Source: a virus. Taken from it: a DNA stretch of 20,267 bases. The position numbers were made by a program, and so were the translations under genes. This document shows positions 3,918-20,108 of this stretch, piece by piece; the first letter of the stretch is position 1; every line of letters starts with the position of its first letter. Where the stretch lies: IMG/VR virus record IMGVR_UViG_3300045107_000494, positions 1 to 20,267 of that record; one strand, 5' to 3'. Under the pieces are notes generated by a model. The model was not told where the DNA came from. It saw only the letters and a list, made by a program, of their open reading frames with translations, and did not search any database.

Positions 3918-3953
3918 AAGGCCCCCTCTCTCGGTCGCGAGAGAGGGGGCCTT
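3918..3953 (-). terminator. strong (bidirectional) intrinsic terminator
   Basis: A perfect 16-bp stem (AAGGCCCCCTCTCTCG against its complement) encloses a 4-base GTCG/CGAC loop. On the minus strand the stem ends CCTT, followed by TCC. It ends the terminase-portal-head transcript after the small gene ending at 3992 and separates it from the scaffold/coat unit. The plus-strand side runs into the palindrome CTTACGTAAG at 3951-3960. The bases from 3730 to 3991 hold no gene that I can support. Confidence 0.8.
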
Positions 3954-6053: not shown

Positions 6054-7559
6054 CTACTCACCGCCCCCGCCGCTAATGCCCCCGCCGCTAATGCCACCGC
6101 CGCTAATGCCACCGCCGAAGGGGCGGCCGCCGTCGAACTGGCGCAGCAGTTCCGACCCTACGTCGCCCGACTCCTTGCGTTCCTGGGCGATCAGCTTCTT
6201 CTCGGTCTCCCAGTTGTAACCGAACTCGGCTGCCAATGTGGCCTTACTTACGATCCCCAACTGTTCGTGGAGCACGGCGGTTTCCGCCCGCTCCTGGTCG
6301 TTGGCGGGGGTAGGGTCGGGCCAGGAGGCGGTGACCTCGCGGTCCGCCCAGCCGCCCAACTCCAGCAGGCACACCGACACCCGCTCCAACAGGTCGCCGA
6401 GGAGCTGCTGCTTGGTCAGCGTCTTGCTGATCAGCGGGGCGTACAGGACCTTGAGCGCGGTGCCCGAGATCTGCCCGAGCTTCTCCATCCGGCTGGACAC
6501 GTCGGGCGTCCGGGCGCGCTGGTAGATCGACTCCTTCAGGTACCGGGCGAAGGCCATCGCGTCGGGGATGCTGCTCGGGATGTCCACGGCGTCGATCCGA
6601 GCCCCGCCCCCGCCGCCCGCCCCGCCGACGCCGCCCCCCGGCAGGCAGATCATCTTGCCCGGCTCGTTGACGAGCTGGCTGGCCTGTACGCCGACGGCGT
6701 ACAGGATCGGGTGCCCGTAGTGGCGCACGACCCGCTTGACGTTGCTGGTGACGAAGTTCAGGTCCTCGTTCAGCTTCAGAAGGTCCGGCGTCAGGTCCGC
6801 GGTGCCGTAGTAGCCGGACGGGTTGGGGTTGCCCTGGGCGTGCTGGACCGGGCACCACGGCAGCGGCCAGACCGCCGGCGCGCCGACGCCCATCCAGGTG
6901 CGGCCGCCGTCCAGGCTCTCCTCGTCCACGATCTGCCAGAAGACGCCCTCCCGCACCTCGCCCGAGTCGTCCGCGGCCGGCAGCACCGTGCGGAAAATCC
7001 TCTGGCGGGTGAGCACCGTCTTCCCGCGGTCCCCCTGCCGCTCGCCCCGGATGCACACCTCGACGACCAGGTCGCGGTCGTCCGGGTCGTGCTGCACGTC
7101 CACGACGCGCGGGTCGAGCGCGACGACGCGCGGGTAGTCGGAGCCGGGGGGCATGAGCACCTTGAGGAACACGTCGCCCGCGACCGCGCCGTGCAGGGCG
7201 GCGGCGTGCAGCAGGCTGTCCAGCTTGTTGCGCCGCCACGCCTCGGCCAGGTACTCGGCCTCGGGCGTGTCGCCGCCGCCGTCCCCGAGCTGGAAGGTCA
7301 CGCCCTTGCCTACCACCATCGAGACGCCGGTGTCCACGACGTCGGCCATGACGTTCTCGGAGACGTTGTCGCGGGCGAACGGGTCGGCCTTGGTGGGGGC
7401 GAGCGCGGGCGGGAAGGTGCCGGCGTAGGCGTTGTACTGCCGGGCGAGCCGCGCGGCCCTGTCCGCCCCGTAGAACGCCTCCTGCGCCCCGCCGGGGGTC
7501 GCGAGGCGCGTGAACCACTCCCGGACCTTGTCGATGGTCAGCGGCCAGTTCCACTGCAT
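6054..7559 (-). CDS. portal protein, SPP1 gp6-like
   Basis: A 501-residue protein from ATG 7559, with GAGGAG eight bases upstream and 25 bases after the large terminase stop. The N-terminal region (R-A-A-R-L-A-R-Q-Y-N-A-Y-A-G) leads to N-V-x-E-N-V-M-A-D-V-V-D-T-G-V-S-M-V-V-G-K-G, then V-A-G-D-V-F-L-K-V and V-V-A-L-D-P-R-V-V-D-V, which is the order of conserved blocks in SPP1-type portals. The C-terminal half has R-T-P-D-V-S-S-R-M-E-K-L-G-Q-I-S-G-T-A-L and S-K-T-L-T-K-Q-Q. Twelve subunits form the channel through which DNA is packaged and to which the connector ring binds. Its last residues are G-G-G-I-S repeats. Gene order terminase, portal, MuF is conserved in siphophages and supports the call. 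Confidence 0.9.
   Translation of the reverse strand: MQWNWPLTIDKVREWFTRLATPGGAQEAFYGADRAARLARQYNAYAGTFPPALAPTKADPFARDNVSENVMADVVDTGVSMVVGKGVTFQLGDGGGDTPEAEYLAEAWRRNKLDSLLHAAALHGAVAGDVFLKVLMPPGSDYPRVVALDPRVVDVQHDPDDRDLVVEVCIRGERQGDRGKTVLTRQRIFRTVLPAADDSGEVREGVFWQIVDEESLDGGRTWMGVGAPAVWPLPWCPVQHAQGNPNPSGYYGTADLTPDLLKLNEDLNFVTSNVKRVVRHYGHPILYAVGVQASQLVNEPGKMICLPGGGVGGAGGGGGARIDAVDIPSSIPDAMAFARYLKESIYQRARTPDVSSRMEKLGQISGTALKVLYAPLISKTLTKQQLLGDLLERVSVCLLELGGWADREVTASWPDPTPANDQERAETAVLHEQLGIVSKATLAAEFGYNWETEKKLIAQERKESGDVGSELLRQFDGGRPFGGGISGGGISGGGISGGGGE
6066..6110 (-). repeat. tandem 15-bp repeat at the portal C-terminus
   Basis: Three near-identical 15-bp units ([A/C]CCGCCGCTAATGCC on the plus strand) encode three G-G-G-I-S units at the end of the portal protein, just before its stop codon. 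Copy number could vary by slippage. The coding frame is kept in all units. Confidence 0.75.
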
Positions 7560-9553: not shown

Positions 9554-9579
9554 GCACAGGAGCACGGTGCTCCATGTGC
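9554..9579. repeat. palindromic element, diverged copy (family 1)
   Basis: GCACAGGAGCAC and GTGCTCCATGTGC form a stem around one central base, with one unpaired base. The sequence matches the two 26-bp copies at 11919-11944 and 14850-14875, except that the G-C pair next to the centre has become A-T on both arms (GGAGCAC/GTGCTCC against GGAGCGC/GCGCTCC). It lies between the terminase leader and the sigma gene. In the terminase reading frame it would encode M-E-H-R-A-P-V-H, close to the T-E-R-G-A-P-V-P of the other copies. Confidence 0.6.
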
Positions 9580-9597
9580 GTGGCAGGGGCGGGGCGA

Positions 9598-9630
9598 CTA
9601 TTAATCGCGTCCCGCGCGCCGGCTACAAAC
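9598..9630 (-). promoter_or_regulatory. candidate late promoter, copy 1 (GTTTGT-N17-CGATTAATAG)
   Basis: On the minus strand GTTTGT, exactly 17 bases, then CGATTAATAG, with TCG following (CCG in the other copy at 3827-3859). It lies about 140 bases before the small terminase start, so the leader would contain the palindromic element at 9554-9579. A sigma-70 match is poor at the upstream box, which favours a special sigma or activator. Confidence 0.6.
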
Positions 9631-9645
9631 CGTCGGCATCAGCGG

Positions 9646-9664
9646 ACCTTAGCAAACCTTAGCA
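9646..9664 (-). repeat. 10-base-period direct repeat upstream of late promoter
   Basis: On the minus strand TGCTAAGGT occurs twice with one base between (9656-9664 and 9646-9654), about 16 bases before the GTTTGT box. A 10-base period puts both copies on one face of the helix, as for a dimeric activator or repressor. It could equally control the divergent sigma gene. A separate 8-bp hairpin (GCGGCGCG/CGCGCCGC, 9667-9687) lies in that gene's leader. Confidence 0.5.
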
Positions 9665-9704
9665 GGGCGGCGCGTCGGACGCGCCGCAGGAAGGCCGGAA
9701 GGCA

Positions 9705-10364
9705 ATGGCAAGAGTGGCAGGGATCACACACAGCAGCGGCCCGCGGAGCGGCGGGCAGAACCGCTTCGGGGTGGCGCGGGCGCCGCGCCGCGCCACGGGG
9801 CGGGACATCGGGGACAGGATCGCGGCGCTGCGCCCCTACATGCTCGCCCGCGCGGAGCGCTGGATGCCGGACGTCCACGTCCAGGCGCGGGAGGACGTGG
9901 TCCAGGAAGCGCTGTACCAGGCGTGGGAACGGGCCGACGCCGGGGGGTTCCGCGAAGAGGGGGACGGCCGTGACGAGGGGGCGCTGACGGCGTGGGTGAG
10001 CGTGTTCCTGGAGCGGCGCTGCGTGGACGCGCTGCGCGCCCCGGCCGCGCGCCGGGAGGTGCCGGCCTCCGACGCCCTGGACCTGCTCCCGGAGGCCGGG
10101 CCGGGTCCGGACGCCGAGGCACTGATCGCGGGGCTGGCGGCCGAGGAAGAGCGGGAGACGCTCTGGGAGCTGGTCGCCGCGGCCGACCTGTCGGAGAAGC
10201 AGGTGGAGTGCCTGCTGGCGCGACTGCGGAACGAGTCCGGCGCCGAGACCGGTGCGCGGCTCGGGATCACGGGCCGGTGCGCGGCCGCCCACTACCACGC
10301 CGCGGTGACCAAGATCCGGGCCGCCTGGGCGGCACGCCTGGCCGAGACGGGCGGGAAACTCTAA
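9705..10364 (+). CDS. ECF-like RNA polymerase sigma factor
   Basis: A 219-residue protein from ATG 9705, with GGAAGG nine bases upstream. Residues about 35-110 form region 2: R-P-Y-M-L-A-R-A-E-R-W-M followed by A-R-E-D-V-V-Q-E-A-L-Y-Q-A-W at 61-74, the classic D-x-V-Q-E-x-x-x-x-x-W core. Residues about 160-210 form region 4: L-S-E-K-Q-V-E-C-L-L-A-R-L, G-A-R-L-G-I-T-G-R-C-A-A-A-H-Y-H-A-A-V-T-K-I-R. The first 34 residues are a basic extension. It is the only plus-strand gene in the centre of the map, placed head-to-head with the structural operon and next to candidate late promoter 1. A role in directing host polymerase to late genes is therefore plausible but inferred. A perfect terminator follows at 10434. 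Confidence 0.82.
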   Translation: MARVAGITHSSGPRSGGQNRFGVARAPRRATGRDIGDRIAALRPYMLARAERWMPDVHVQAREDVVQEALYQAWERADAGGFREEGDGRDEGALTAWVSVFLERRCVDALRAPAARREVPASDALDLLPEAGPGPDAEALIAGLAAEEERETLWELVAAADLSEKQVECLLARLRNESGAETGARLGITGRCAAAHYHAAVTKIRAAWAARLAETGGKL

Positions 10365-10377
10365 GGCGCCTCAAAGG

Positions 10378-10407
10378 TTCGCCCCCGTCGTAGAATGGGG
10401 GCGCGAA
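10378..10407 (+). other. hairpin in the sigma-gene 3' region
   Basis: CGCCCCC and GGGGGCG (10380-10386 and 10397-10403) pair around a 10-base loop, with flanking TTCGC/GCGAA pairs and a two-base bulge. It lies 14 bases after the sigma stop and before the main terminator, and may protect the mRNA end. Confidence 0.4.
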
Positions 10408-10433
10408 ACTCTCGTCCCCACCCCCATAGGGAC

Positions 10434-10465
10434 AGGGGTCCGGCCGTGCGGCCGGACCCCTTTTT
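10434..10465 (+). terminator. intrinsic terminator of the sigma gene
   Basis: AGGGGTCCGGCC and GGCCGGACCCCT form a perfect 12-bp stem with a GTGC loop, followed by TTTTT (10461-10465). It ends the plus-strand sigma transcript just before the stop codon of the convergent gene at 10470. The same stem on the minus strand lacks a U-tract. Confidence 0.9.
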
Positions 10466-10469
10466 CATG

Positions 10470-10742
10470 TCAGTGGAACGTCGAGGCGCGAGCGTTGACG
10501 GGGGTGCCATCCGCGACGAAATCGATGATCGCTCCGTCCCTTGTGCAGCCAAACCAGCCCGCAGCCCGCTCCGGGATCGGCTGGGCGAAGTACCGCCACA
10601 GCGGGGTGCCGGCGTAGGCGTCCGGGTGCCACGGGTCCTCGCCGCGCTCCCAGTGATGTACGTGCCGCTTCGGGGAGGGCTCCTGCGTCTCGCTGACGGT
10701 CACGAGGGCCTCAGCATCGGGTTGTGATTCTTCAGTGGTCAT
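10470..10742 (-). CDS. small hypothetical early protein
   Basis: A 90-residue protein. ATG 10742 is chosen because AAAGGG lies seven bases upstream; an in-frame ATG at 10769 that overlaps the preceding stop (ATGA) has no good site. The first 30 residues are acidic and polar (MTTEESQPDAEALVTVSETQ). The rest is rich in Trp, His and Pro (HVHHWERGEDPWHP, PLWRYFAQPIPERAAGWFGC) and ends in an A-x-I-D-F-V-A-D-G-T-P strand. A lone cysteine and several histidines give no clear metal site. No family is recognised. It is the last gene of the early operon. Confidence 0.55.
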   Translation of the reverse strand: MTTEESQPDAEALVTVSETQEPSPKRHVHHWERGEDPWHPDAYAGTPLWRYFAQPIPERAAGWFGCTRDGAIIDFVADGTPVNARASTFH

Positions 10743-10765
10743 GTTCGCACCCTTTCTGACGTGGG

Positions 10766-10978
10766 TCATCGCGGCACCGCAGCGTTAGTGCGTTCGGGGG
10801 CGGTGGTCGGCTCCGAAGGTGGCGGCGCGTCGTTCGGGTCGTCGTAGTCGTCGGCGGACGAGAAGCCGCACTCTTCGCAGTCCACCCAGAAGGCTTCGGG
10901 GTCGTCGCTCATCTCGTCCCCGCGGGGCGAGAGCGGGGCGCCGCACTCCGGACAGAACCCGTACGATCCGCTACTCAC
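10766..10978 (-). CDS. small zinc-ribbon protein
   Basis: A 70-residue protein from GTG 10978, with GAGGAG eight bases upstream. An in-frame ATG at 10996 has no ribosome-binding site and would overlap the preceding gene more deeply. Y-G-F-C-P-E-C-G-A-P-L at residues 6-16 and W-V-D-C-E-E-C-G-F near 31-40 form two C-x-x-C knuckles, a typical zinc ribbon. The C-terminus is acidic and then Pro/Thr-rich and probably disordered. Such short proteins often bind nucleic acid or host enzymes. It overlaps the upstream gene by eight bases. Confidence 0.6.
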   Translation of the reverse strand: MSSGSYGFCPECGAPLSPRGDEMSDDPEAFWVDCEECGFSSADDYDDPNDAPPPSEPTTAPERTNAAVPR

Positions 10979-11321
10979 GGTGGACGCTCCTCGCATCGGC
11001 GTGCCGGATGTCGGCGGCCATCACCGGGACCGCGCGCTCCCACTCGCGCCGGAAGTCCTGGTCCGGCAGGAGGATGCCGGCGACGACCCGCTCGGCGACG
11101 ACGGGGTACCGGCCGGAGTGCTCCAGCTCGCCGGGCGCGGCGGGGCGCTGCCGGCGGCGGTGGGCCTCCCAGGCGTGCTCGACGTGCCGGGCGCAGTAGC
11201 GGCGCCCGTCGGGGCCGAGCATCGTTCCGCGGAACGAGCAGGGGCGCTGCCGGCGCGAGCCGGTCTCGACCACGGTGAACGAACACGGCGGCTCGGCGGG
11301 CGCGCGGCGTGCGTCGCCCAT
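10971..11321 (-). CDS. small Cys/His-rich hypothetical protein
   Basis: A 116-residue protein from ATG 11321, which shares one base with the TGA of the ATPase gene (TGATG) and has GGAGGA eight bases upstream, a strong coupled start. P-C-S-F occurs twice (C13 and C28), followed by G-P-D-G-R-R-Y-C-A-R-H (C43, H46), a possible C-C-C-H zinc site. The C-terminal half (Y-P-V-V-A-E-R-V-V-A-G-I-L-L-P-D-Q-D-F-R-R-E-W-E-R) is amphipathic. The family is not recognised. The layout suggests nucleic-acid or host-protein binding together with the adjoining ATPase. Another frame over the same bases was rejected because this one has the better start. Confidence 0.6.
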   Translation of the reverse strand: MGDARRAPAEPPCSFTVVETGSRRQRPCSFRGTMLGPDGRRYCARHVEHAWEAHRRRQRPAAPGELEHSGRYPVVAERVVAGILLPDQDFRREWERAVPVMAADIRHADARSVHRE

Positions 11322-13405
11322 CAGGTGTTTCCTCCATCTCCGTGCCCCGGATCTGCCGGGAACAGCGCGTCCGCGGCGCAGAGCAGCGCCCCGTCGGCGG
11401 TGACCAACTCGTCCCCCTCGTCCAGGAGGGCGCGCAGGGCGGCCACGAACTCCCTCGACGACACCTTCTGCCCGACGCGCGCCGCCAGCTCCAGCCGCGA
11501 CACCGGCCCGTAGCCTTCGAGCCGGGCCTCGACCAGGGCGCGCAGGGTCCGGACGGCGAGCGACTGCGTCCCGCCGAGGCGGGACGTCCACAGCGCGACC
11601 AGGTGGAGCGTCACGGCCTCCTGGGGCCGCCCGCGCGGGTCCGACACGCCCACCGCGGCCAGGCCAGCGGGGGTGACGGCGTCGGAGGCGTCGAGTCCGG
11701 CCCCACCGAACTCCGCCCAGCCCTGGTCGCGCAGGGCGTAGATGGCGCGGCGGGTGTTGCGGGACAGCGCGCCGCTGCCGGGCTCGACGGCGGTGGACAG
11801 CCCGGCCAGGCGCAGCGCGGTCCGGCGCCGGACCGGGGCGCCGCGCCACGCGGCGAGAACCATCAGGAGGCGCTGCGCCCCCGCGGGCAAGGCGAGGAAG
11901 GCCGAAGACGGCGGGGCGGGCACAGGAGCGCCGCGCTCCGTGCCGGGCGGCTCCGGCATGGGCGCCGCCCCAGGTTTCTCCTCGATGGCGGGGACCTCGG
12001 GGGTATCACCACGGTCGTCACCAGGCTCATCGCGGTACCGCTGCGATGGCGCGTTAGCGTCCGGAACCACGTTTGCCAGTACAGGGTCCGGGGCACCCTC
12101 CGCCGGATCGTCATCGAGGGCGGCCAGCGGTTCCAGCACGGCGAGCAGCTTGCCGACCCCCTTGTCCAGGCCCGCGGCCACGCCGGTCACCTCGCGGATC
12201 GCCGCCAGCGTCTCGGCCGAGATCACCTCGACCGGGTAGGGCACGACGAAGGGCCGCTCGATCACGCGCACCACGGTCCGGACCGCGGGCGGGACCGTGG
12301 CGGCCATGCCGGGCAGAGAAACCTGTGCCGGGACCCGCGCCGCAGCAGCGGGCCGGGGCTCGCCCTGCTGCTCCCTGGCCTCCTTCAGGGCCTGCTCCAG
12401 GGCGGCGATCCGGGCGTTGGCGCCCTCCAGCGTCGCGGCCTGCCCCTCGGCCTCGGCGGAGAGCGCGGCGAAGTGGCCCTGGAGCAGCGCCCGCAGCGAG
12501 TCGGACGTGGGCGGCGCCGCGGCGGCCGCGCCGAGCAGGCCGACCGGCGGCCGGTGGGTGAGCGTGTCGGGCACGGACACCACCGCGACCTCGCCTGCCC
12601 CGCCCAGTGCCGGGGCGAAGGCCGGCCCCTGCACGAAGAACTCGCCGCGGCGCATGGCCTTGAGGCGGGCGGCGTCTTCCCGCGACAACCCCAGGTCGTC
12701 CGCGGCCCGCTTGCGGCGGATGTCCATCGCGATGGTGCCGACGACCTTGTTGCGGAGGTTGGAGATCGCCCCCTTGTCGATCTGCTCGACGTTCTGGGTG
12801 GCGAAGACGGGCACCATGCCCCGCTTGCGGCCGATGGCGGGCAGGTTGAGCAGCGCGGACTTGGCGGGCGAGTCGCCGCTCTGGGGCGCGTACAGGTGGG
12901 CCTCGTCCACCACGACCAGCACGGGGTGCCACAGGGCGCGCGGGGTGGCCAGCAGCTCGCCGAGGAAGGCGGCGACCCAGAGCGGCCGGTCTTCGACCCG
13001 CATCCCGGACAGGTCGGCGATCAGCGAGACGCCGACCTCCATCACCCGCTGGCACAGCACGCCCGCGGTGGCCACCGACAGCGGCAGGTCGGACCCGTCG
13101 CCATGCATGGAGCGCGGCGCTCCAGTGCCGTCGCCCCCGGCGATCAGGTAGTCGAACCGCTCCCGGAGCGTCCAGAACTCGCCCTCGCTGTCGATCACGA
13201 CCTGGTGGACGCGGCCGTGCGTCTCCTCCAGGAGGAAGCGCAGCAGGTGGCTCTTGCCGCTGCCGGGGCCGCCGTAGACCAGGAACCCGGCCGCCTCGGC
13301 CTTGACCCACTCCAGGTCCACGGCGAGCGCGCCCGCGGGCGGGCCGGCCGCGAGCGAGAGCGGGGGCGGGCCGTCGCCCCCGTCGATCGGCATCTTCTGC
13401 TGCAT
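11321..13405 (-). CDS. HerA/DUF87-type ATPase with C-terminal winged-helix region
   Basis: A 694-residue protein from ATG 13405, with GGAGG ten bases upstream. Residues 45-52 (G-G-P-G-S-G-K-S) are Walker A, I-D-S-E-G-E-F-W-T-L-R at 71-81 resembles the HerA/DUF87 block after it, V-L-V-V-V-D-E-A-H at 162-170 is Walker B, and A-T-Q-N at 202-205 is the sensor motif. This places it with hexameric DNA translocases of the HerA-FtsK class. Residues about 310-350 are a coiled coil. The C-terminal part (about 540-690) is Leu/Ala-rich with repeated helix-turn-helix-like stretches (R-R-T-A-L-R-L-A-G-L-S, V-S-R-L-E-L-A-A-R-V-G). Two palindromic elements lie inside, giving G-T-G-A-P-R-S at 93-99 and a G-T-E-R-G-A-P-V-P near 510. 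It probably acts in phage DNA replication or DNA handling; the exact role is unknown. Confidence 0.8.
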   Translation of the reverse strand: MQQKMPIDGGDGPPPLSLAAGPPAGALAVDLEWVKAEAAGFLVYGGPGSGKSHLLRFLLEETHGRVHQVVIDSEGEFWTLRERFDYLIAGGDGTGAPRSMHGDGSDLPLSVATAGVLCQRVMEVGVSLIADLSGMRVEDRPLWVAAFLGELLATPRALWHPVLVVVDEAHLYAPQSGDSPAKSALLNLPAIGRKRGMVPVFATQNVEQIDKGAISNLRNKVVGTIAMDIRRKRAADDLGLSREDAARLKAMRRGEFFVQGPAFAPALGGAGEVAVVSVPDTLTHRPPVGLLGAAAAAPPTSDSLRALLQGHFAALSAEAEGQAATLEGANARIAALEQALKEAREQQGEPRPAAAARVPAQVSLPGMAATVPPAVRTVVRVIERPFVVPYPVEVISAETLAAIREVTGVAAGLDKGVGKLLAVLEPLAALDDDPAEGAPDPVLANVVPDANAPSQRYRDEPGDDRGDTPEVPAIEEKPGAAPMPEPPGTERGAPVPAPPSSAFLALPAGAQRLLMVLAAWRGAPVRRRTALRLAGLSTAVEPGSGALSRNTRRAIYALRDQGWAEFGGAGLDASDAVTPAGLAAVGVSDPRGRPQEAVTLHLVALWTSRLGGTQSLAVRTLRALVEARLEGYGPVSRLELAARVGQKVSSREFVAALRALLDEGDELVTADGALLCAADALFPADPGHGDGGNT
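11919..11944. repeat. palindromic element, copy A (family 1)
   Basis: A 26-bp element, GGCACAGGAGCG followed by CCGCGCTCCGTGCC on the plus strand, identical to 14850-14875. The arms pair over 11 bp with one bulged A and a 3-base loop. In the ATPase frame it encodes G-T-E-R-G-A-P-V-P within a Pro-rich linker. Confidence 0.75.
13105..13129. repeat. palindromic element, inverted copy C (family 1)
   Basis: Read on the minus strand it starts GGCACTGGAGCG and continues CCGCGCTCCATGC, matching the plus strand of copies A and B at all but about three positions. It is therefore inserted in the opposite direction. It encodes G-T-G-A-P-R-S-M-H in the ATPase N-terminal domain. Confidence 0.65.
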
Positions 13406-13753
13406 CAGGTCCAGTCCTCCGTCGTCTCCGTACCAACACTACAGACACTATCGAGCGGGCCGCGCCTCCGCGGGGAGGGGGACGGCGGGCCGCCGTGGAA
13501 CACACGACCAGCGGACCCTGCGTCGGTCAGGCTCTCCGCGGCCGGGGCGACGTGACGCCCGCCTGTCGGCCATAACATCCGGCCTCCCCTCCCTGAGCGC
13601 CACGTGCCCGGAGGGGAACTCCCCAGACCGCCCGAACGGGGGAGCGGGACGGAACGGGAGGGGCCGGCCCACCCGTGGGCGGGCAGCCCACCGCACACGA
13701 CGGCCACCCGCGAGAGCGGCCCACCGTCCACAAGCCCGCGGCGCCAGCGCGCG
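13406..13753. other. 348-base gap without a supported gene
   Basis: Open frames cross this stretch, but their translations are Gly/Pro/Arg-rich with no recognisable motif and no good start, as expected for GC-rich noncoding DNA. An AT-richer patch at 13427-13451 with CACTA twice (9-base period) is the most promoter-like part for the ATPase gene, though no -35/-10 pair is convincing. A small hairpin GGGGA/TCCCC lies near 13615-13626. The gap follows the large replication-type gene and could be a regulatory or origin region. Confidence 0.35.
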
Positions 13754-15625
13754 TCACGCACCGCCCTGGGCCTCCCCCGCCCCATCCGCTCCCCTCTGTG
13801 CCCACCCGCCGAGCAGCTTCAGCTCCATGCGCGACTTGACGACCGGGGCGGGCGGCGCGTAGGCGAGACGGCCGCCCTTCTCGGCCTTCAGCTCCGCGAT
13901 CACCTCCGAGCGCAGGGCGCCCCGCTGCTCGGGCGTGAGCGCGTCCAGGCGGCGGCGTGCCTCGGCCTTGCCGGCGGCCACCGGCGGCGCCGCGGCGGGG
14001 GCGAACGCCCGGCGGGCCGACGCCTCGCCCGGCGGCGGGTCATCGTCCGGCCGGCCCGGCGGCGGCGCTGTCGCTGGCGGCGACACCGGCTCGGGCGTCC
14101 GCTCGGGCTCCTGGTCGGTCACGCCCGGCGTGACTTCGGCGAACGCCTCGGCCGCCGCGGCGGCGTCGCGCAGCATCCGGACCATCTCGTCGGTGCGGCG
14201 CAGGTGAACCTCCTCCCGCTCCCACCACCGCTCGAAGGCCTCGGGGAACTCGCTGAAGTTCTCCCAGACGGTGCGGACGTAGCCGCCCATGTTGCCGACC
14301 GGGGGCTGCCCCGGCCGGTTGCGCCACCGGGCGTAGAAGGCGAGCTGGAGCCCGACGGCGGCGAAGTCCAGCCCCTTCGCCCTGCACTCGGCGCGGATCT
14401 GCTCGCGGAGCGGGAACGACGCCCCGACGGCCTTCAGGGCCTGCTGCGCGCGGCGGTCGCCCCGGTCCCCCCGGCCGGCCGCGGCTTCCCTCGCGTGTGC
14501 GGGGGCCTGTGCGCGTTGTTCTGTAGTACGAGACGCATTTTTGCGGGTAGGAACCAGTCTGGCGGGGGGACCGTCGGCGGGCACCGCCGCGCGCTCCCCC
14601 GCCCCCTTTTCCGTAGACTCAACACTACAAGAAGCGGAAGCGGACGGGTCAGACGGGGCGCTGCCCGCCTCCGGCTGTCGTGTTCGGGTTAGGGATGGAT
14701 CGGGGGAAGAAGAGGACCCGGCCGGGGTGCGCGGCGAGACCCCCCCGGCGCCCGGAGCGTGGGAGGGCAGGGGGGTCTTCCCTTTGGCGAGGAGCTGCTC
14801 GACCGACGCATCCGCCCAGGTCGCGGGGTCGTCGGGGTCATAGGCGCGCGGCACAGGAGCGCCGCGCTCCGTGCCCGGCGCGGGACGATCCTCGGCGTCA
14901 ATCACTTGATTGGCTTGCGCGGCCGCGTCAGCCTCGGCGGTCACCGCGGAGATTTTGGCGGCCTCGTCCGCGGGCGTCGGCACCGGCTCCAGGTCGCCGC
15001 GGAGCAGCGGTCGGAGCGCGTCGGCCACGTCGCCCCTCACGAGCGCGAGGAGGCCCGACAGGTCGTAGCAGTTGGTCGGGCCGTACCCCTTGGGCTCGGG
15101 GTAGTCGTGCGGGCCGGGGCCGTCGGCCAGCTCCTTGGGGTCGGTGATGACGCGGACCAGGCGGAGCGCCTTCGCCTCGCGCAGCGCGCGGTCCACCGTG
15201 GCGAGGTTGACCGGGTCCGCGCCCTCGGGGGTCATGTCGTCGGCGAGGCACTTGCGCGACGCCCAGACGCGGTTGCCGCGCCAGCCGACGTGGCTCATCA
15301 GCGCCCGGACCAGATCGATGATGCCCTGACGGAAGCGGGTCAGCTTGCGGGGCAGGAACTCGGTCAGGGCGCCGGTGACGTAGCGCACGACGTGGATGCG
15401 CTCGCCGGGGACCCGGCGGCGGAGCAGGTCGCGCCGGCGCGTGCGGCTGTAGCCGCCGCCGACGCCCGCGGCCGCGTAGGCGCGGGCCTGGGCGTGCTTG
15501 CGGAAGCGCTGCGCGCGATCCGGATCGGCGGGCTTTCGGGCCGCGGGGTCGTCCGGGAACAGGTTGTCGGAAGGGGTCGGGCCGGCGGCGGCAGTGCCGG
15601 CGGCGGGGGCGGGCGTCATGTCCAT
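13754..15625 (-). CDS. probable replication initiator-like protein with N-terminal winged-helix domain
   Basis: A 623-residue protein from ATG 15625; an ATG four codons shorter is close by, and neither has a strong ribosome-binding site. Residues 40-210 contain a helical, basic domain (R-K-L-T-R-F-R-Q-G-I-I-D-L-V-R-A-L-M) and a helix-turn-helix-like W-A-S-R-K-C-L-A-D-D-M-T-P, then V-N-L-A-T-V-D-R-A-L-R-E-A-K-A-L-R-L-V-R-V-I, typical of winged-helix replication initiators in which a second helix sets DNA contact and the strand follows. A long disordered Ala/Pro/Ser linker spans about 220-390. A second helical domain follows (L-R-E-Q-I-R-A-E-C-R-A-K-G-L-D-F; M-G-G-Y-V-R-T-V-W-E-N-F). Palindromic inserts of two families occur inside it. 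It heads its own operon after a terminator at 15742-15771. The role is inferred by pattern and place; no catalytic motif is seen. Confidence 0.55.
   Translation of the reverse strand: MDMTPAPAAGTAAAGPTPSDNLFPDDPAARKPADPDRAQRFRKHAQARAYAAAGVGGGYSRTRRRDLLRRRVPGERIHVVRYVTGALTEFLPRKLTRFRQGIIDLVRALMSHVGWRGNRVWASRKCLADDMTPEGADPVNLATVDRALREAKALRLVRVITDPKELADGPGPHDYPEPKGYGPTNCYDLSGLLALVRGDVADALRPLLRGDLEPVPTPADEAAKISAVTAEADAAAQANQVIDAEDRPAPGTERGAPVPRAYDPDDPATWADASVEQLLAKGKTPLPSHAPGAGGVSPRTPAGSSSSPDPSLTRTRQPEAGSAPSDPSASASCSVESTEKGAGERAAVPADGPPARLVPTRKNASRTTEQRAQAPAHAREAAAGRGDRGDRRAQQALKAVGASFPLREQIRAECRAKGLDFAAVGLQLAFYARWRNRPGQPPVGNMGGYVRTVWENFSEFPEAFERWWEREEVHLRRTDEMVRMLRDAAAAAEAFAEVTPGVTDQEPERTPEPVSPPATAPPPGRPDDDPPPGEASARRAFAPAAAPPVAAGKAEARRRLDALTPEQRGALRSEVIAELKAEKGGRLAYAPPAPVVKSRMELKLLGGWAQRGADGAGEAQGGA
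14116..14138. repeat. palindromic element copy 1 (family 2)
   Basis: A 23-base sequence centred on the inverted repeat GTCACGCC-C-GGCGTGAC, identical to 16892-16914. It encodes E-V-T-P-G-V-T in the minus-strand frame. Confidence 0.7.
14850..14875. repeat. palindromic element, copy B (family 1)
   Basis: Identical over 26 bases to 11919-11944, in a different gene. It encodes the same peptide G-T-E-R-G-A-P-V-P in the linker of the initiator-like protein. Confidence 0.75.
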
Positions 15626-15741: not shown

Positions 15742-15771
15742 AGCAGGGGAGGCGTCGTGGCCTCCCCTGCT
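15742..15771 (-). terminator. intrinsic terminator of the 15777-18116 operon
   Basis: AGCAGGGGAGGC and GCCTCCCCTGCT form a 12-bp stem with a 6-base loop. On the minus strand it is followed by GCGTTTATACG, a U-containing tail, six bases after the stop of the gene at 15777. The AT-richer bases from about 15700 to 15740 just beyond may hold the promoter of the next gene, but no clear hexamer pair is visible. Confidence 0.7.
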
Positions 15772-16611: not shown

Positions 16612-16998
16612 TTAGCCGGCCTCCCTCGACCGCTCGTCCAGCCGCTCTTCCCCGCCCCTGCCGCCCTCGCCGCCCTCGCCGAGGAGCGTATCTGCTACCT
16701 CGGCGGCGGCGTCGCATTCGTCGGCGAGCACGCCCCACACCTCGGCGGTGACGCGGGCGCCCTCGGCCCGTCGGCGCCCCTCGCGCGCCCGGCACACGGA
16801 CGCGATCTCGCGCAGCAGCGGCGACGGGGATTCCGTCTCGCCGTGGACGGCGAAGTCCAGCGCGGCCCGGACCAGGCCCGCCGCGGCGTCCCGGTCACGC
16901 CCGGCGTGACTTCGATCCGGAGCGTGGCCGGATGCCCCTGCCGCAAGTCCGGTGCCGCGAGAGAGGCCAGTGTCTGCTTGATGCGTGTCGGGTTCCAC
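16612..16998 (-). CDS. small hypothetical protein, possibly frameshifted
   Basis: A 128-residue frame from GTG 16998, with GGGAG five bases upstream. The part from about residue 40 onward (A-A-G-L-V-R-A-A-L-D-F-A-V-H-G, then P-L-L-R-E-I-A-S-V-C-R-A, V-T-A-E-V-W-G-V-L-A-D-E-C-D) has coding-like third positions. The first 36 codons have fewer G/C third bases, while a different frame over the same bases reads P-W-N-P-T-R-I-K-Q-T-L-A-S-L-A-A-P-D-L and then E-V-T-P-G-V-T with normal codon use. A one-base loss beside the family-2 palindrome (16892-16914) would join these into one longer protein. It may thus be a frameshift, a sequencing error or two true frames. Alternative start: ATG 17016. Function unknown. 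Confidence 0.45.
   Translation of the reverse strand: MEPDTHQADTGLSRGTGLAAGASGHAPDRSHAGRDRDAAAGLVRAALDFAVHGETESPSPLLREIASVCRAREGRRRAEGARVTAEVWGVLADECDAAAEVADTLLGEGGEGGRGGEERLDERSREAG
16892..16914. repeat. palindromic element copy 2 (family 2)
   Basis: Identical over 23 bases to 14116-14138, centred on GTCACGCC-C-GGCGTGAC. In one minus-strand frame it gives the same peptide E-V-T-P-G-V-T, marking the frame that was probably original. Confidence 0.7.
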
Positions 16999-17022
16999 GG
17001 TATCTCCCGGTGACATGCCGGA

Positions 17023-17051
17023 GGCCGGCACGCCCACATGGCGTGCCGGCC
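17023..17051. other. 12-bp hairpin between early genes, ATG in its loop
   Basis: GGCCGGCACGCC and GGCGTGCCGGCC pair perfectly over 12 bases around a 5-base loop. On the minus strand the loop is ATGTG and holds a start-like ATG preceded by a GGGGGG tract. There is no U-tract, so it is a processing or regulatory structure or another palindromic element rather than a plain terminator. Confidence 0.5.
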
Positions 17052-17075
17052 CCCCTTCGACGAACGCCGCGGCCG

Positions 17076-17414
17076 TCAGGGCCGCCTCCTGCGGTCGCTG
17101 GCGCGGAGGGCACGCAATCGCACCTCGCGGTCGCTGGCGAAGCCGCGGCGCCGGTGCCAGAGCAGGTTGTCCGCTGCGAAGTCGGCGAGCGGCTGGCCGG
17201 CCGGGAGGGAGAGCGGCGCCATGTCCTCGCCGGTCAGCTCGCCGCCCACGTCGAACCAGGTCAGCGGGACGCGCAGGGCGCGACGGGCGGGCGCGGGTGT
17301 TGGCGCGGGCGGGACGGGCGGGACGCTGTTGCGCCCCACCACGAACCGGACCAGCAGGCCGCCGCGGCGGCGGACCACGACGCGCCGGAGCAGGCGAGGG
17401 TCGAACGGCTTCAC
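17076..17414 (-). CDS. small basic hypothetical protein
   Basis: A 112-residue protein from GTG 17414; the GTG overlaps the stop of the preceding gene (GTGA) and GGGAGG lies six bases upstream, so translation is coupled. It is strongly basic at both ends (V-K-P-F-D-P-R-L-L-R-R-V-V-V-R-R-R-G; E-V-R-L-R-A-L-R-A-S-D-R-R-R-R-P). The middle has P-V-P-P-A-P-T-P, then L-T-W-F-D-V-G-G-E-L, and L-P-A-G-Q-P-L-A-D-F-A. Probably nucleic-acid binding. No family recognised. Confidence 0.6.
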   Translation of the reverse strand: MKPFDPRLLRRVVVRRRGGLLVRFVVGRNSVPPVPPAPTPAPARRALRVPLTWFDVGGELTGEDMAPLSLPAGQPLADFAADNLLWHRRRGFASDREVRLRALRASDRRRRP

Positions 17415-17848
17415 GGCCGGCCTCCCTTCCGCGCGTGGGCGGCCAGGCGCAGCCCTTCCACGGCGTGGGCGATCTCGTGCCGCGCGGCCTCGGGCGCCCG
17501 CTCCGCACGTCCCGTCGCCTGCAACTCCTCCAGGAGGGCCAGGTGACGCTTGGCGCCCTCCTCCAGGTGCAGGACGGCGGCCAGGAGGCCGTCGTACGCG
17601 ACGAAGCGCTGGGCGTCCGCCGCGGCCCGGCGCGCGGCCTCCGGATCGACCGCGCCCTCGGCGAACGGGCTCGGCCCGAACAGGGCGACCAGCCTGCCCT
17701 CCTCGCCGCGGCGGAGGCCCTCCGCCTCGTAGACGGCGACGTGCTCGCTGATGGCGAGGAAGGCCGGGGTGAGGACGTAGTAGCCGACACGCAAGTCGCG
17801 GGCGGGCCAAGTGGGTTCAGAGGCGTTCTCAGGTGTGTTCTCAGACAC
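17411..17848 (-). CDS. small helical hypothetical protein
   Basis: A 145-residue protein from GTG 17848, with GGGGAGG six bases upstream, and an 8-base overlap with the preceding gene. The N-terminal part has R-D-L-R-V-G-Y-Y-V-L-T-P-A-F-L-A-I-S-E-H-V, then acidic/Ala-rich helices (D-P-E-A-A-R-R-A-A-A-D-A, L-L-A-A-V-L-H-L-E-E-G-A-K-R-H-L-A-L-L-E-E-L) and H-E-I-A-H at about 124-128. H-E-I-A-H fits the H-E-x-x-H zinc-protease pattern, but here it lies in a plain amphipathic helix near the end without a clear third ligand, so no protease call is made. Early-operon gene of unknown role. Confidence 0.6.
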   Translation of the reverse strand: MSENTPENASEPTWPARDLRVGYYVLTPAFLAISEHVAVYEAEGLRRGEEGRLVALFGPSPFAEGAVDPEAARRAAADAQRFVAYDGLLAAVLHLEEGAKRHLALLEELQATGRAERAPEAARHEIAHAVEGLRLAAHARKGGRP

Positions 17849-18116
17849 GGGGCGCCTCCCCCCCGGCCGGCTCCCCCGGCTCGACCTCGCGGATGGTCAG
17901 GTGGCACTTGGCGCAGCAGTGGAAGCGCACGTAGCCCCGGCCGCCGACGTGCAGCGGCTCGACGTAGCTGACGGCGTGCGCGCAGGACGGGCAGCAGGGG
18001 ACCCGCCGGAAGCGGGCGAAGGCCAGCACGGCGTCCTGGGCCGTGGAGAGGCCCGCGCGGGCGGCCGCGGGCGGGTGTCCGATTGACCCGGACGGAGGGC
18101 GAGTGGTAGACTGCAT
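17841..18116 (-). CDS. zinc-ribbon early protein
   Basis: A 91-residue protein from ATG 18116; longer in-frame starts reach into the hairpin upstream and are less likely, though the ribosome-binding site (AAAGG, 13 bases away) is weak. The N-terminus is basic and Ala/Pro-rich. The C-terminal half has P-C-C-P-S-C-A-H-A-V, a strand pair, then F-H-C-C-A-K-C-H-L-T-I, two C-x-x-C knuckles of a zinc ribbon. Short zinc-ribbon proteins in early regions often bind DNA, RNA or host polymerase. It overlaps the next gene by eight bases. Confidence 0.6.
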   Translation of the reverse strand: MQSTTRPPSGSIGHPPAAARAGLSTAQDAVLAFARFRRVPCCPSCAHAVSYVEPLHVGGRGYVRFHCCAKCHLTIREVEPGEPAGGEAPRV

Positions 18117-18188
18117 CGGTTTGTTTGGCCTTTCTGAGCGCGTGGGGTTCGCTGTCCACGGCGCGCTCGGGAGGGTTGGTTTGGTTAC

Positions 18189-19170: not shown

Positions 19171-19665
19171 GTGACACCCCCTCAGTACCCCCAGCCCGGC
19201 TACGCGCCGGCTCCCCAGAAGCGTAGCCCTTGGCCCTGGATTCTCGGCATCGGCTGCGGCGCCCCCGCGCTGCTGTTCGCCGGCTGCATCGTGTGCGTCA
19301 GCACTGCCGCCAACCAGGTGGCGAAGGACCCTGAGTTCCGGAAGAGCATGAAGGAACTTCAGGAGGTGGGGAAGAACACGGCCGCCGAGAAGGTTGACCT
19401 AGTCGCGGGGTCACTCAAGATCACCCGCAACAGCCTGGGCGGCGTGGACATACAGGGCGCGATCAAAAACCGCACCCCGGACGCGATCCCCTACTTGCAG
19501 GTCAAGTTCGCACTCTTCGACAAGTCCGGCGCCCAAGTGGACACCGAGATGAGCAACACCACCGACTTGGCCGGGAAGGGCACCTGGAAGTTCAAAATCA
19601 GTTCCATGAAGGAAGACGTTGCGAACGTCAAACTGATCTCGGTCTCCACTTCCGCTCTCGACTAG
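19171..19665 (+). CDS. membrane-anchored protein with FxLYD-type domain
   Basis: A 164-residue protein from GTG 19171, with GGAG ten bases upstream. Residues 1-18 are Pro/Gln/Tyr-rich. A hydrophobic span lies at about 21-45 (W-P-W-I-L-G-I-G-C-G-A-P-A-L-L-F-A-G-C), so most of the protein is probably outside the membrane. Residues about 75-162 form a beta-rich domain with V-D-I-Q-G-A-I-K-N, Y-L-Q-V-K-F-A-L-F-D-K-S-G and G-T-W-K-F-K-I, the pattern of FxLYD domains in bacterial surface and prophage proteins. It follows the repressor on the same strand and is thus probably expressed in lysogens. Superinfection exclusion or a host-surface change is possible; nothing here proves it. Confidence 0.65.
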   Translation: MTPPQYPQPGYAPAPQKRSPWPWILGIGCGAPALLFAGCIVCVSTAANQVAKDPEFRKSMKELQEVGKNTAAEKVDLVAGSLKITRNSLGGVDIQGAIKNRTPDAIPYLQVKFALFDKSGAQVDTEMSNTTDLAGKGTWKFKISSMKEDVANVKLISVSTSALD

Positions 19666-19682
19666 GAGGAAGGTTCACGTCT

Positions 19683-19757
19683 GTGCGCGAGATCGGACCA
19701 GTGTGCAGACGAGTTCAAAGCAGTAGATGGGGGATCGAGCATCGTGATGACGGATGA
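19683..19757 (+). CDS. possible 24-residue leader peptide
   Basis: A short frame from GTG 19683 has GGAAGG nine bases upstream (part of AGGAGGAAGG after the previous stop), and ends inside the next gene's first codons. The strong ribosome-binding site has no other clear start. It could couple translation to the next gene or be chance. Confidence 0.25.
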   Translation: MREIGPVCRRVQSSRWGIEHRDDG

Positions 19758-20061
19758 GTTTGAGATAGCAACGGCGATCACTGCGGGGACATGGTTCCTG
19801 TTAGCCGCACTTATTGGGTATTGGGCGAGCAGCAAAGGCCGCTCCGGGTTGCTCTTCTTCATCGCTTCCCTGATACTGACGCCGCTCGTCGCAGCATTCG
19901 CTGTAGTGCTGATGCCAGCGGACCGAGTAGCCGTCGAGAGGAGGCTCTTACGCGGCGGCGCGATGAAGAAGTGCGCCAATTGCGCCGAACTGATCAAATC
20001 CGAAGCTCAGGTTTGTCGCTTTTGTGGCAACAGCTTTCTGCCCGCGTCTGAACGACGTTAA
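19744..20061 (+). CDS. two-span membrane protein with C-terminal zinc ribbon
   Basis: A 105-residue protein from GTG 19744, with GGGGGA nine bases upstream; an ATG one codon later is equally possible. Two hydrophobic segments lie at about 13-29 (T-A-G-T-W-F-L-L-A-A-L-I-G-Y-W) and 36-57 (L-L-F-F-I-A-S-L-I-L-T-P-L-V-A). The C-terminus carries K-K-C-A-N-C-A-E-L-I-K-S-E-A-Q-V-C-R-F-C-G (cysteines 77, 80, 91, 94), a zinc ribbon found at the end of many small bacterial membrane proteins. Codon use is more AT-rich than in the structural genes. It is the last gene before the hairpin at 20078. A role in exclusion of other phages is a guess. Confidence 0.65.
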   Translation: MMTDEFEIATAITAGTWFLLAALIGYWASSKGRSGLLFFIASLILTPLVAAFAVVLMPADRVAVERRLLRGGAMKKCANCAELIKSEAQVCRFCGNSFLPASERR

Positions 20062-20077: not shown

Positions 20078-20108
20078 CCAACGCACCAACGTTACGTTGG
20101 TGCGTTGG
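20078..20108 (+). terminator. long perfect hairpin after the lysogeny genes
   Basis: CCAACGCACCAACG and its complement form a perfect 14-bp stem with a TTA loop. CCTTGACA follows on the plus strand, so there is no U-tract; it can act as a stabiliser, a roadblock or a two-way terminator. It ends two bases before the -35 box of the next promoter. Confidence 0.65.

What the first reader, a model, noticed from the sequence alone, without database searches (positions are those of the whole stretch)
9554..14875. Dispersed palindromic element inside genes encodes the same peptide, with a compensatory pair change
Two identical 26-bp copies (11919-11944, 14850-14875) lie in different genes yet are read in the same frame as G-T-E-R-G-A-P-V-P. 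A third copy (13105-13129) is inverted, encoding G-T-G-A-P-R-S, and a fourth (9554-9579) has both arms changed from G-C to A-T at the matching pair. Both insertion into coding frames without breaking them and stem conservation point to a mobile, selected palindrome similar in concept to Rickettsia palindromic elements.
Basis: partly seen in the sequence, partly recalled or inferred. Interest (0 to 1): 0.7.

Follow-up and report, generated by a model that had tools for sequence, protein, structure and literature searches.

The report
Tiny mobile palindrome in phage genes
A 25-26-letter hairpin-forming DNA sequence occurs four times in one virus fragment, and in one gene it can be shown to have been inserted (33 letters, 11 amino acids, flanked by an 8-letter duplication), so it looks like a very small selfish element that jumps into bacteriophage genes without breaking them.

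Summary
A 15-bp core palindrome, GGAGCRCSGYGCTCC, occurs exactly four times in 20 kb. Six bacterial genomes hold it only once or twice each. Two copies share an identical 26-mer. All three genic copies start on a codon boundary, and the fourth has paired changes in both arms.

The best new evidence is at copy 3. It lies in a HerA-like ATPase, and all 17 aligned homologues lack the 10-11 residues there. A perfect 8-bp direct repeat, 33 nt apart, brackets exactly those 11 codons. Removing the unit restores the homologues' loop length. This copy is therefore an insertion with a target-site-type duplication.

A second, unrelated short palindrome is repeated in the same contig, so there are at least two families.

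I favour a mobile, probably selfish palindrome that works like Rickettsia palindromic elements or intragenic REPs, but in a phage and very small. No true relative was found in viral contigs or in the bacterial genomes scanned, and no mobilising enzyme is present. The planctomycete host is unproven, and structural selection is not separable from template-switch repair. New variant of a known kind.

The parts
11919..11944 (+). Family 1, copy 1: GGCACAGGAGCGCCGCGCTCCGTGCC, inside the HerA-like ATPase gene (minus strand), in the Pro/Ala-rich stretch between the ATPase domain and the C-terminal part; read G-T-E-R-G-A-P-V-P
   Evidence: folds as DNA hairpin z -4.0
14850..14875 (+). Family 1, copy 2: identical 26-mer in a low-complexity stretch of ORF 13754-15625 (minus strand), same frame G-T-E-R-G-A-P-V-P
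13105..13129 (-). Family 1, copy 3 (inverted): GGCACTGGAGCGCCGCGCTCCATGC inside the conserved ATPase domain; read G-T-G-A-P-R-S
13095..13135 (-). Insertion footprint at copy 3: direct repeats CCGTCGCC at 13095-13102 and 13128-13135 (GGCGACGG on the coding strand) around a 25-bp insert at 13103-13127; unit 33 nt = 11 codons absent from homologues
9554..9579 (-). Family 1, copy 4: GCACATGGAGCACCGTGCTCCTGTGC, arms changed in pairs; probably intergenic between the terminase small-subunit gene (minus) and the sigma-like gene at 9705 (plus)
14116..14138 (+). Family 2, copy 1: CGGTCACGCCCGGCGTGACTTCG (17-bp odd palindrome GTCACGCCCGGCGTGAC) inside ORF 13754-15625, read E-V-T-P-G-V-T
16892..16914 (+). 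Family 2, copy 2: same 23-mer in ORF 16612-18159 (minus), in the likely coding frame read S-H-A-G-R-D
11321..13405 (-). Gene for a HerA/DUF87-like ATPase that carries copies 1 and 3
13754..15625 (-). ORF of unknown function that carries family 1 copy 2 and family 2 copy 1; no relative found

Best explanation
The repeats are a very short mobile palindromic element (about 25 bp) that inserts into DNA, makes a short target duplication, and survives inside genes only where it adds a harmless hydrophilic linker. Shown: copy 3 is an insertion of 33 nt (25 bp plus a duplicated 8-bp target) that leaves the reading frame intact and sits in a loop that homologous ATPases lack. Inferred: the other copies arose the same way. 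The extruded or single-stranded hairpin (6-bp stem, CCG/CGG loop, one-base bulge, about 5-bp outer stem) is what the mobilising machinery recognises. That machinery is supplied in trans by the unknown host, because no transposase was recognised in the contig. The shared reading register reflects that the GGC-ACN register gives Gly/Pro-rich peptides without Cys, tolerable in linkers. The element is most likely selfish or near-neutral for the phage.
For: Four core matches against 0 in 994/1000 null windows and against 1-2 per genome in six bacterial genomes. Unrelated host sites and both orientations. Insertion at copy 3 relative to 17/17 homologues from alpha- and betaproteobacteria, actinobacteria, haloarchaea and two phage records. 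The 8-bp direct repeat has P about 0.003 by local shuffles and about 0.002 by random positions, its 33-nt period equals the 11-residue gap, and removing it restores the homologues' loop length. All three genic copies start on a codon boundary. Paired changes 5 against 1.2 expected. A second repeated palindrome in the same contig suggests a palindrome-rich genetic background.
Against: Only copy 3 has homologues good enough for an empty-site test. The 6-bp flanking repeats at copies 1 and 2 are marginal (P 0.04-0.05) and imply 31 and 32 nt, not multiples of 3. Copy 4 has no flanking repeat. No second genome carries the family. No mobilising enzyme was recognised in the contig (no Y1 transposase). 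A 25-bp element leaves little room for two transposase-binding ends.
Confidence: 0.6

Rival explanations
1. The palindromes are binding sites (operators, stoperators or partition-like sites) for a dimeric phage or host protein, kept in several places because the protein must act there, and accommodated in gene linkers.
For: The core is a perfect odd palindrome, as expected of a dimer site; copy 4 lies in a probable intergenic region between divergent genes; all copies fall in a 5.3-kb block; family 2 has the same odd-palindrome design.
Against: Three of the four copies are inside genes rather than at promoters; copy 3 arrived as an insertion with a flanking duplication, not by point mutation of existing sequence; no sigma-70-type promoter-like site near copy 4 (one promoter type only).
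Confidence: 0.18
2. RNA hairpins with a regulatory role in the minus-strand transcripts (processing, stability or translational pausing).
For: Copies 2 and 4 fold better than most shuffles as RNA (z -2.2 and -2.9).
Against: In local context copies 1 and 3 do not fold into the element hairpin at minimum energy on the transcribed strand; orientation relative to transcription is mixed; no Rfam family matches at these sites.
Confidence: 0.08
3. Copies spread by ectopic recombination or replication template switching inside this phage rather than by a dedicated mobile system; the paired arm changes are hairpin-templated corrections, not selection.
For: Copies 1 and 2 are identical over 26 bp with little flank similarity; the paired changes come from one copy, which such correction also produces.
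Against: The 8-bp duplication at copy 3 with exact 33-nt insertion is more typical of a staggered cut and fill-in; two different families in one contig need two independent events.
Confidence: 0.12
4. Chance similarity in a 72% G+C contig.
For: Short G+C-rich matches are common: near-matches turn up in unrelated genomes.
Against: Null windows do not reproduce four cores, the 26-mer or the two repeated hairpins.
Confidence: 0.02

Closest known systems
Rickettsia palindromic elements (RPE)
   Same: Palindromic inserts in frame inside unrelated protein genes, adding a peptide; more than one family per genome.
   Different: RPEs described as about 150 bp in a bacterial chromosome (PMC10969869); here 25-26 bp (33 bp with the duplication) in a phage contig, no sequence relation tested or claimed.
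REP elements (GTAG- and CGTC-tagged palindromes, RAYT-mobilised)
   Same: 20-40 bp palindromes, sometimes within genes, many of those for DNA replication and repair (PMC3733652); the ATPase here is HerA-like.
   Different: No GTAG tag and no consistent CGTC tag at the foot of the hairpin; no Y1/RAYT transposase in the contig.
Small dispersed repeats of cyanobacteria (SDR5)
   Same: Very short repeat modules inserted precisely into a site (PMC4390886 mentions SDR5 inserted in HIP1); grouped with other short palindromic repeats in PMC3116915.
   Different: SDR5 targets HIP1; here the three genic sites share no target word. The original SDR paper was not held, so details are from memory.
Short palindromic repeats of Volvox organelle DNA
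   Same: Short selfish palindromes dispersed in a genome (PMC2670323, abstract only read).
   Different: Organelle DNA; no in-frame insertion with flanking duplication was compared here.
REP-like repeat of a Reyranella MAG (G349)
   Same: GCACTGGAGYGCCGCGCTCC matches copy 3 at 19-20 of 20 bases.
   Different: Its palindrome is centred elsewhere (GGCAC-TGGA-GTGCC with GAGC/GCTC outside, followed by CAGC) and it does not match the full 26-mer; judged a coincidence of a 257-Gb scan.

Membership tests
Rickettsia palindromic elements | In-frame insertion into protein genes relative to homologues | tested here: met
   Copy 3: 11 residues absent in 17/17 homologues
Rickettsia palindromic elements | Length of about 100-150 bp | tested here: not met
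   Repeat length 25-26 bp, at most 31 nt at 97% identity
Rickettsia palindromic elements | Residence in Rickettsiales genomes | not tested
   Host unknown; the scan of 84,980 species genomes showed no Rickettsia match to the strict pattern
REP/RAYT elements | 20-40 bp imperfect palindrome, dispersed | tested here: met
   Four copies, bulged hairpin
REP/RAYT elements | GTAG or CGTC tetranucleotide at one end | tested here: not met
   Flanks of copies 1, 2 and 4 carry neither next to the hairpin; CGTC at copy 3 belongs to the duplicated target
REP/RAYT elements | Associated Y1 tyrosine transposase | tested here: inconclusive
   None in the contig; the phage record is a fragment and the host is unknown
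Transposase-mobilised MITE | Target-site duplication of fixed length at each copy | tested here: inconclusive
   8 bp clear at copy 3; 6 bp marginal at copies 1 and 2; none at copy 4
Transposase-mobilised MITE | Full-length parent element with matching terminal inverted repeats | tested here: inconclusive
   No parent recognised in the window; pattern scans of viral and genome contigs gave no relative

The most novel reading that the evidence does not exclude
A phage lineage and its unsampled high-G+C host carry several families of about 25-bp mobile palindromes that transpose with an 8-bp target duplication. Insert plus duplication totals 33 bp, a multiple of three, so an insertion keeps the reading frame: the smallest such elements shown to build protein loops in a virus.
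Probability: 0.25. Interest if true: 0.8.

Novelty: new variant of a known kind. Interest (0 to 1): 0.55.

Why it matters
In-frame palindromic inserts are known from bacterial chromosomes. I found no report of them as dispersed elements inside phage genes, though the paper library is partial. Here one copy keeps its insertion footprint (empty site inferred from homologues, 8-bp duplication, 11 codons), which makes the question of how such minimal palindromes move directly testable. It also shows a concrete route by which a virus protein gains a new loop.

Tried and rejected
Pattern scans of viral contigs for the full, bulge-tolerant, A-variant and centre-relaxed forms gave only unrelated single matches, some of them terminator-like. 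About 400 Actinomycetota and 400 Pseudomonadota genomes showed multiple near-matches only in the Reyranella MAG; 720 kb of it were read and its repeat is a different palindrome. BLAST of 41-44-bp queries against plasmids and phages gave only weak matches. Related phage records (closest terminase 47% identical) lack the family. Relatives of the ATPase and of ORF 13754-15625 were sought in the related phages without success. Acidobacteriota gave only distant ATPase-domain matches. AlphaFold of the ATPase part without an alignment was unusable (mean pLDDT 35). I first noted family 2 as read in the same frame in both genes; codon-position G+C shows different frames, so that note is withdrawn.

Full report
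WHAT THE WINDOW IS. The window is a whole IMG/VR virus record of 20,267 bp, probably a phage fragment. Terminase, portal, head and coat proteins lie on the minus strand in the left half. The closest large-terminase relative in viral contigs is 47% identical. The host is unknown; nothing I could run shows that it is a planctomycete.

IS THE REPEAT REAL? The core GGAGCRCSGYGCTCC has four exact matches, at 9559, 11925, 13109 and 14856; the next best places have two mismatches. Order-5 Markov windows have none in 994 of 1000 trials and never more than two. Copies 1 and 2 share an identical 26-mer. Null windows reached 21 at most in 60 order-5 trials and 24 once in 150 order-4 trials. Six bacterial genomes chosen because they contain a match hold only one or two cores in 2.9-6.8 Mb each. 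A covariance model built from the four copies finds no further convincing copy in the window (the four training copies match by construction, and the next places score far lower). Chance is excluded.

ANATOMY. Oriented with loop CCG, the copies read GGCAC-A-GGAGCG-CCG-CGCTCC-GTGCC (11919 and 14850), GGCAC-T-GGAGCG-CCG-CGCTCC-ATGC (13105, on the minus strand) and GCACA-T-GGAGCA-CCG-TGCTCC-TGTGC (9554, on the minus strand). The design is a 6-bp inner stem, a 3-base loop, one bulged base and a 5-bp outer stem. As DNA, copies 1/2 and 4 fold at z about -4; copy 3 folds only its inner stem. Paired changes number 5 against 1.2 in shuffles, but with four sequences they stem essentially from copy 4, so they are one or a few events. 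Hairpin-templated correction would give the same pattern, so selection on the stem is not demonstrated.

FRAME. Copies 1, 2 and 3 start exactly on a codon boundary of GC3-biased minus-strand ORFs: GTERGAPVP, GTERGAPVP and, with the element inverted, GTGAPRS. All six frames of the element are open. The two GGC-ACN registers give Gly/Pro-rich peptides; three of the other four frames contain Cys. The shared register has chance 1/9 for two further copies, so it is suggestive only. Copy 4 is probably intergenic: the stretch ahead of the terminase small subunit has weak codon bias, and the Pfam domain begins at residue 57 of the longest ORF.

THE INSERTION TEST. Copy 3 lies in a HerA/DUF87-like ATPase. 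In an alignment with 17 homologues from plasmids of alpha- and betaproteobacteria, actinobacteria and haloarchaea plus two phage records, every homologue lacks the 10-11 residues that the palindrome encodes. On the DNA the palindrome is flanked by a perfect 8-bp direct repeat, GGCGACGG on the coding strand (13128-13135 and 13095-13102). The two copies are 33 nt apart, i.e. 11 codons. Removing one unit gives a loop of the same length as in four of six homologues checked and within one residue in the other two. Such a repeat arises by chance at about 0.003 under local dinucleotide shuffling and about 0.002 at random window positions, before counting the match of its period to the protein gap. 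This is the strongest evidence in the case: copy 3 was inserted, with a target-site-type duplication. At copies 1 and 2 the flanking repeats are only 6 bp and marginal (P 0.04-0.05) and their periods (31 and 32 nt) would not keep frame; copy 4 has none. So a fixed 8-bp duplication is shown for one copy only.

A SECOND FAMILY. The 23-mer CGGTCACGCCCGGCGTGACTTCG, with the perfect odd palindrome GTCACGCCCGGCGTGAC, occurs at 14116 and 16892. In ORF 13754-15625 it reads EVTPGVT; in ORF 16612-18159 the likely coding frame reads SHAGRD. Ten viral contigs hold single or paired exact matches to the 17-mer in unrelated contexts, about what chance would give by my rough estimate. The window is also enriched in stems of 8 bp or more (18 against 6.8 expected), but some other phages are too, so this is context rather than proof.

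RELATIVES. None were found. Four pattern scans of 2.9 million viral contigs and one of 84,980 species genomes gave only unrelated single matches. Targeted searches of about 800 genomes found multiple near-matches only in a Reyranella MAG. Reading 720 kb of it shows a different, differently centred palindrome.

MECHANISM. I favour a minimal mobile palindrome, moved in trans by an unidentified host enzyme, that survives in genes only where a short hydrophilic loop is tolerated (0.6). Shown: repetition, both orientations, unrelated sites, in-frame insertion with duplication at copy 3. Inferred: same origin for the other copies, hairpin recognition, trans mobilisation, neutrality. Rivals: protein-binding sites (0.18), intra-phage template switching (0.12), RNA hairpins (0.08), chance (0.02).

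COMPARISON. It works like Rickettsia palindromic elements (about 150 bp, often in frame, PMC10969869) and like intragenic REPs (20-40 bp, PMC3733652), but it does not meet the length of the former or the GTAG/CGTC tag of the latter, and no Y1 transposase is present in the contig. I therefore call it a new variant of a known kind, not a member of either.

Noticed in passing
window 14116-14138 and 16892-16914: A second repeated 23-mer palindrome (CGGTCACGCCCGGCGTGACTTCG), unrelated to the first, inside two different ORFs.
   Followed up: partly
window 3918-3953, 10434-10461, 15742-15771, 20078-20108: Strong intergenic hairpins with stems of 12-16 bp; the one at 10434 is followed by a T run and looks like an intrinsic terminator.
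   Followed up: no
window 19171-20061: An FxLYD-domain protein and a zinc-ribbon membrane protein at the right end look like bacterial rather than phage genes; the contig may end in host DNA or carry cargo.
   Followed up: no
window 6063-6122: A 15-bp tandem repeat (GCCCCCGCCGCTAAT) at the 3' end of the portal gene, adding a GGGIS repeat tail.
   Followed up: no
L195-L200 (Reyranella MAG, G349): An intergenic REP-like repeat GAGCGGCACTGGAGTGCCGCGCTCCCAGC, seven copies found by one pattern; one variant keeps its stem through paired changes (CCACTGGAGTGG).
   Followed up: partly
L115 43-155: Two copies of GTCACGCCCGGCGTGAC 96 bp apart with similar flanks in an unrelated viral contig, possibly paired operators.
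   Followed up: no
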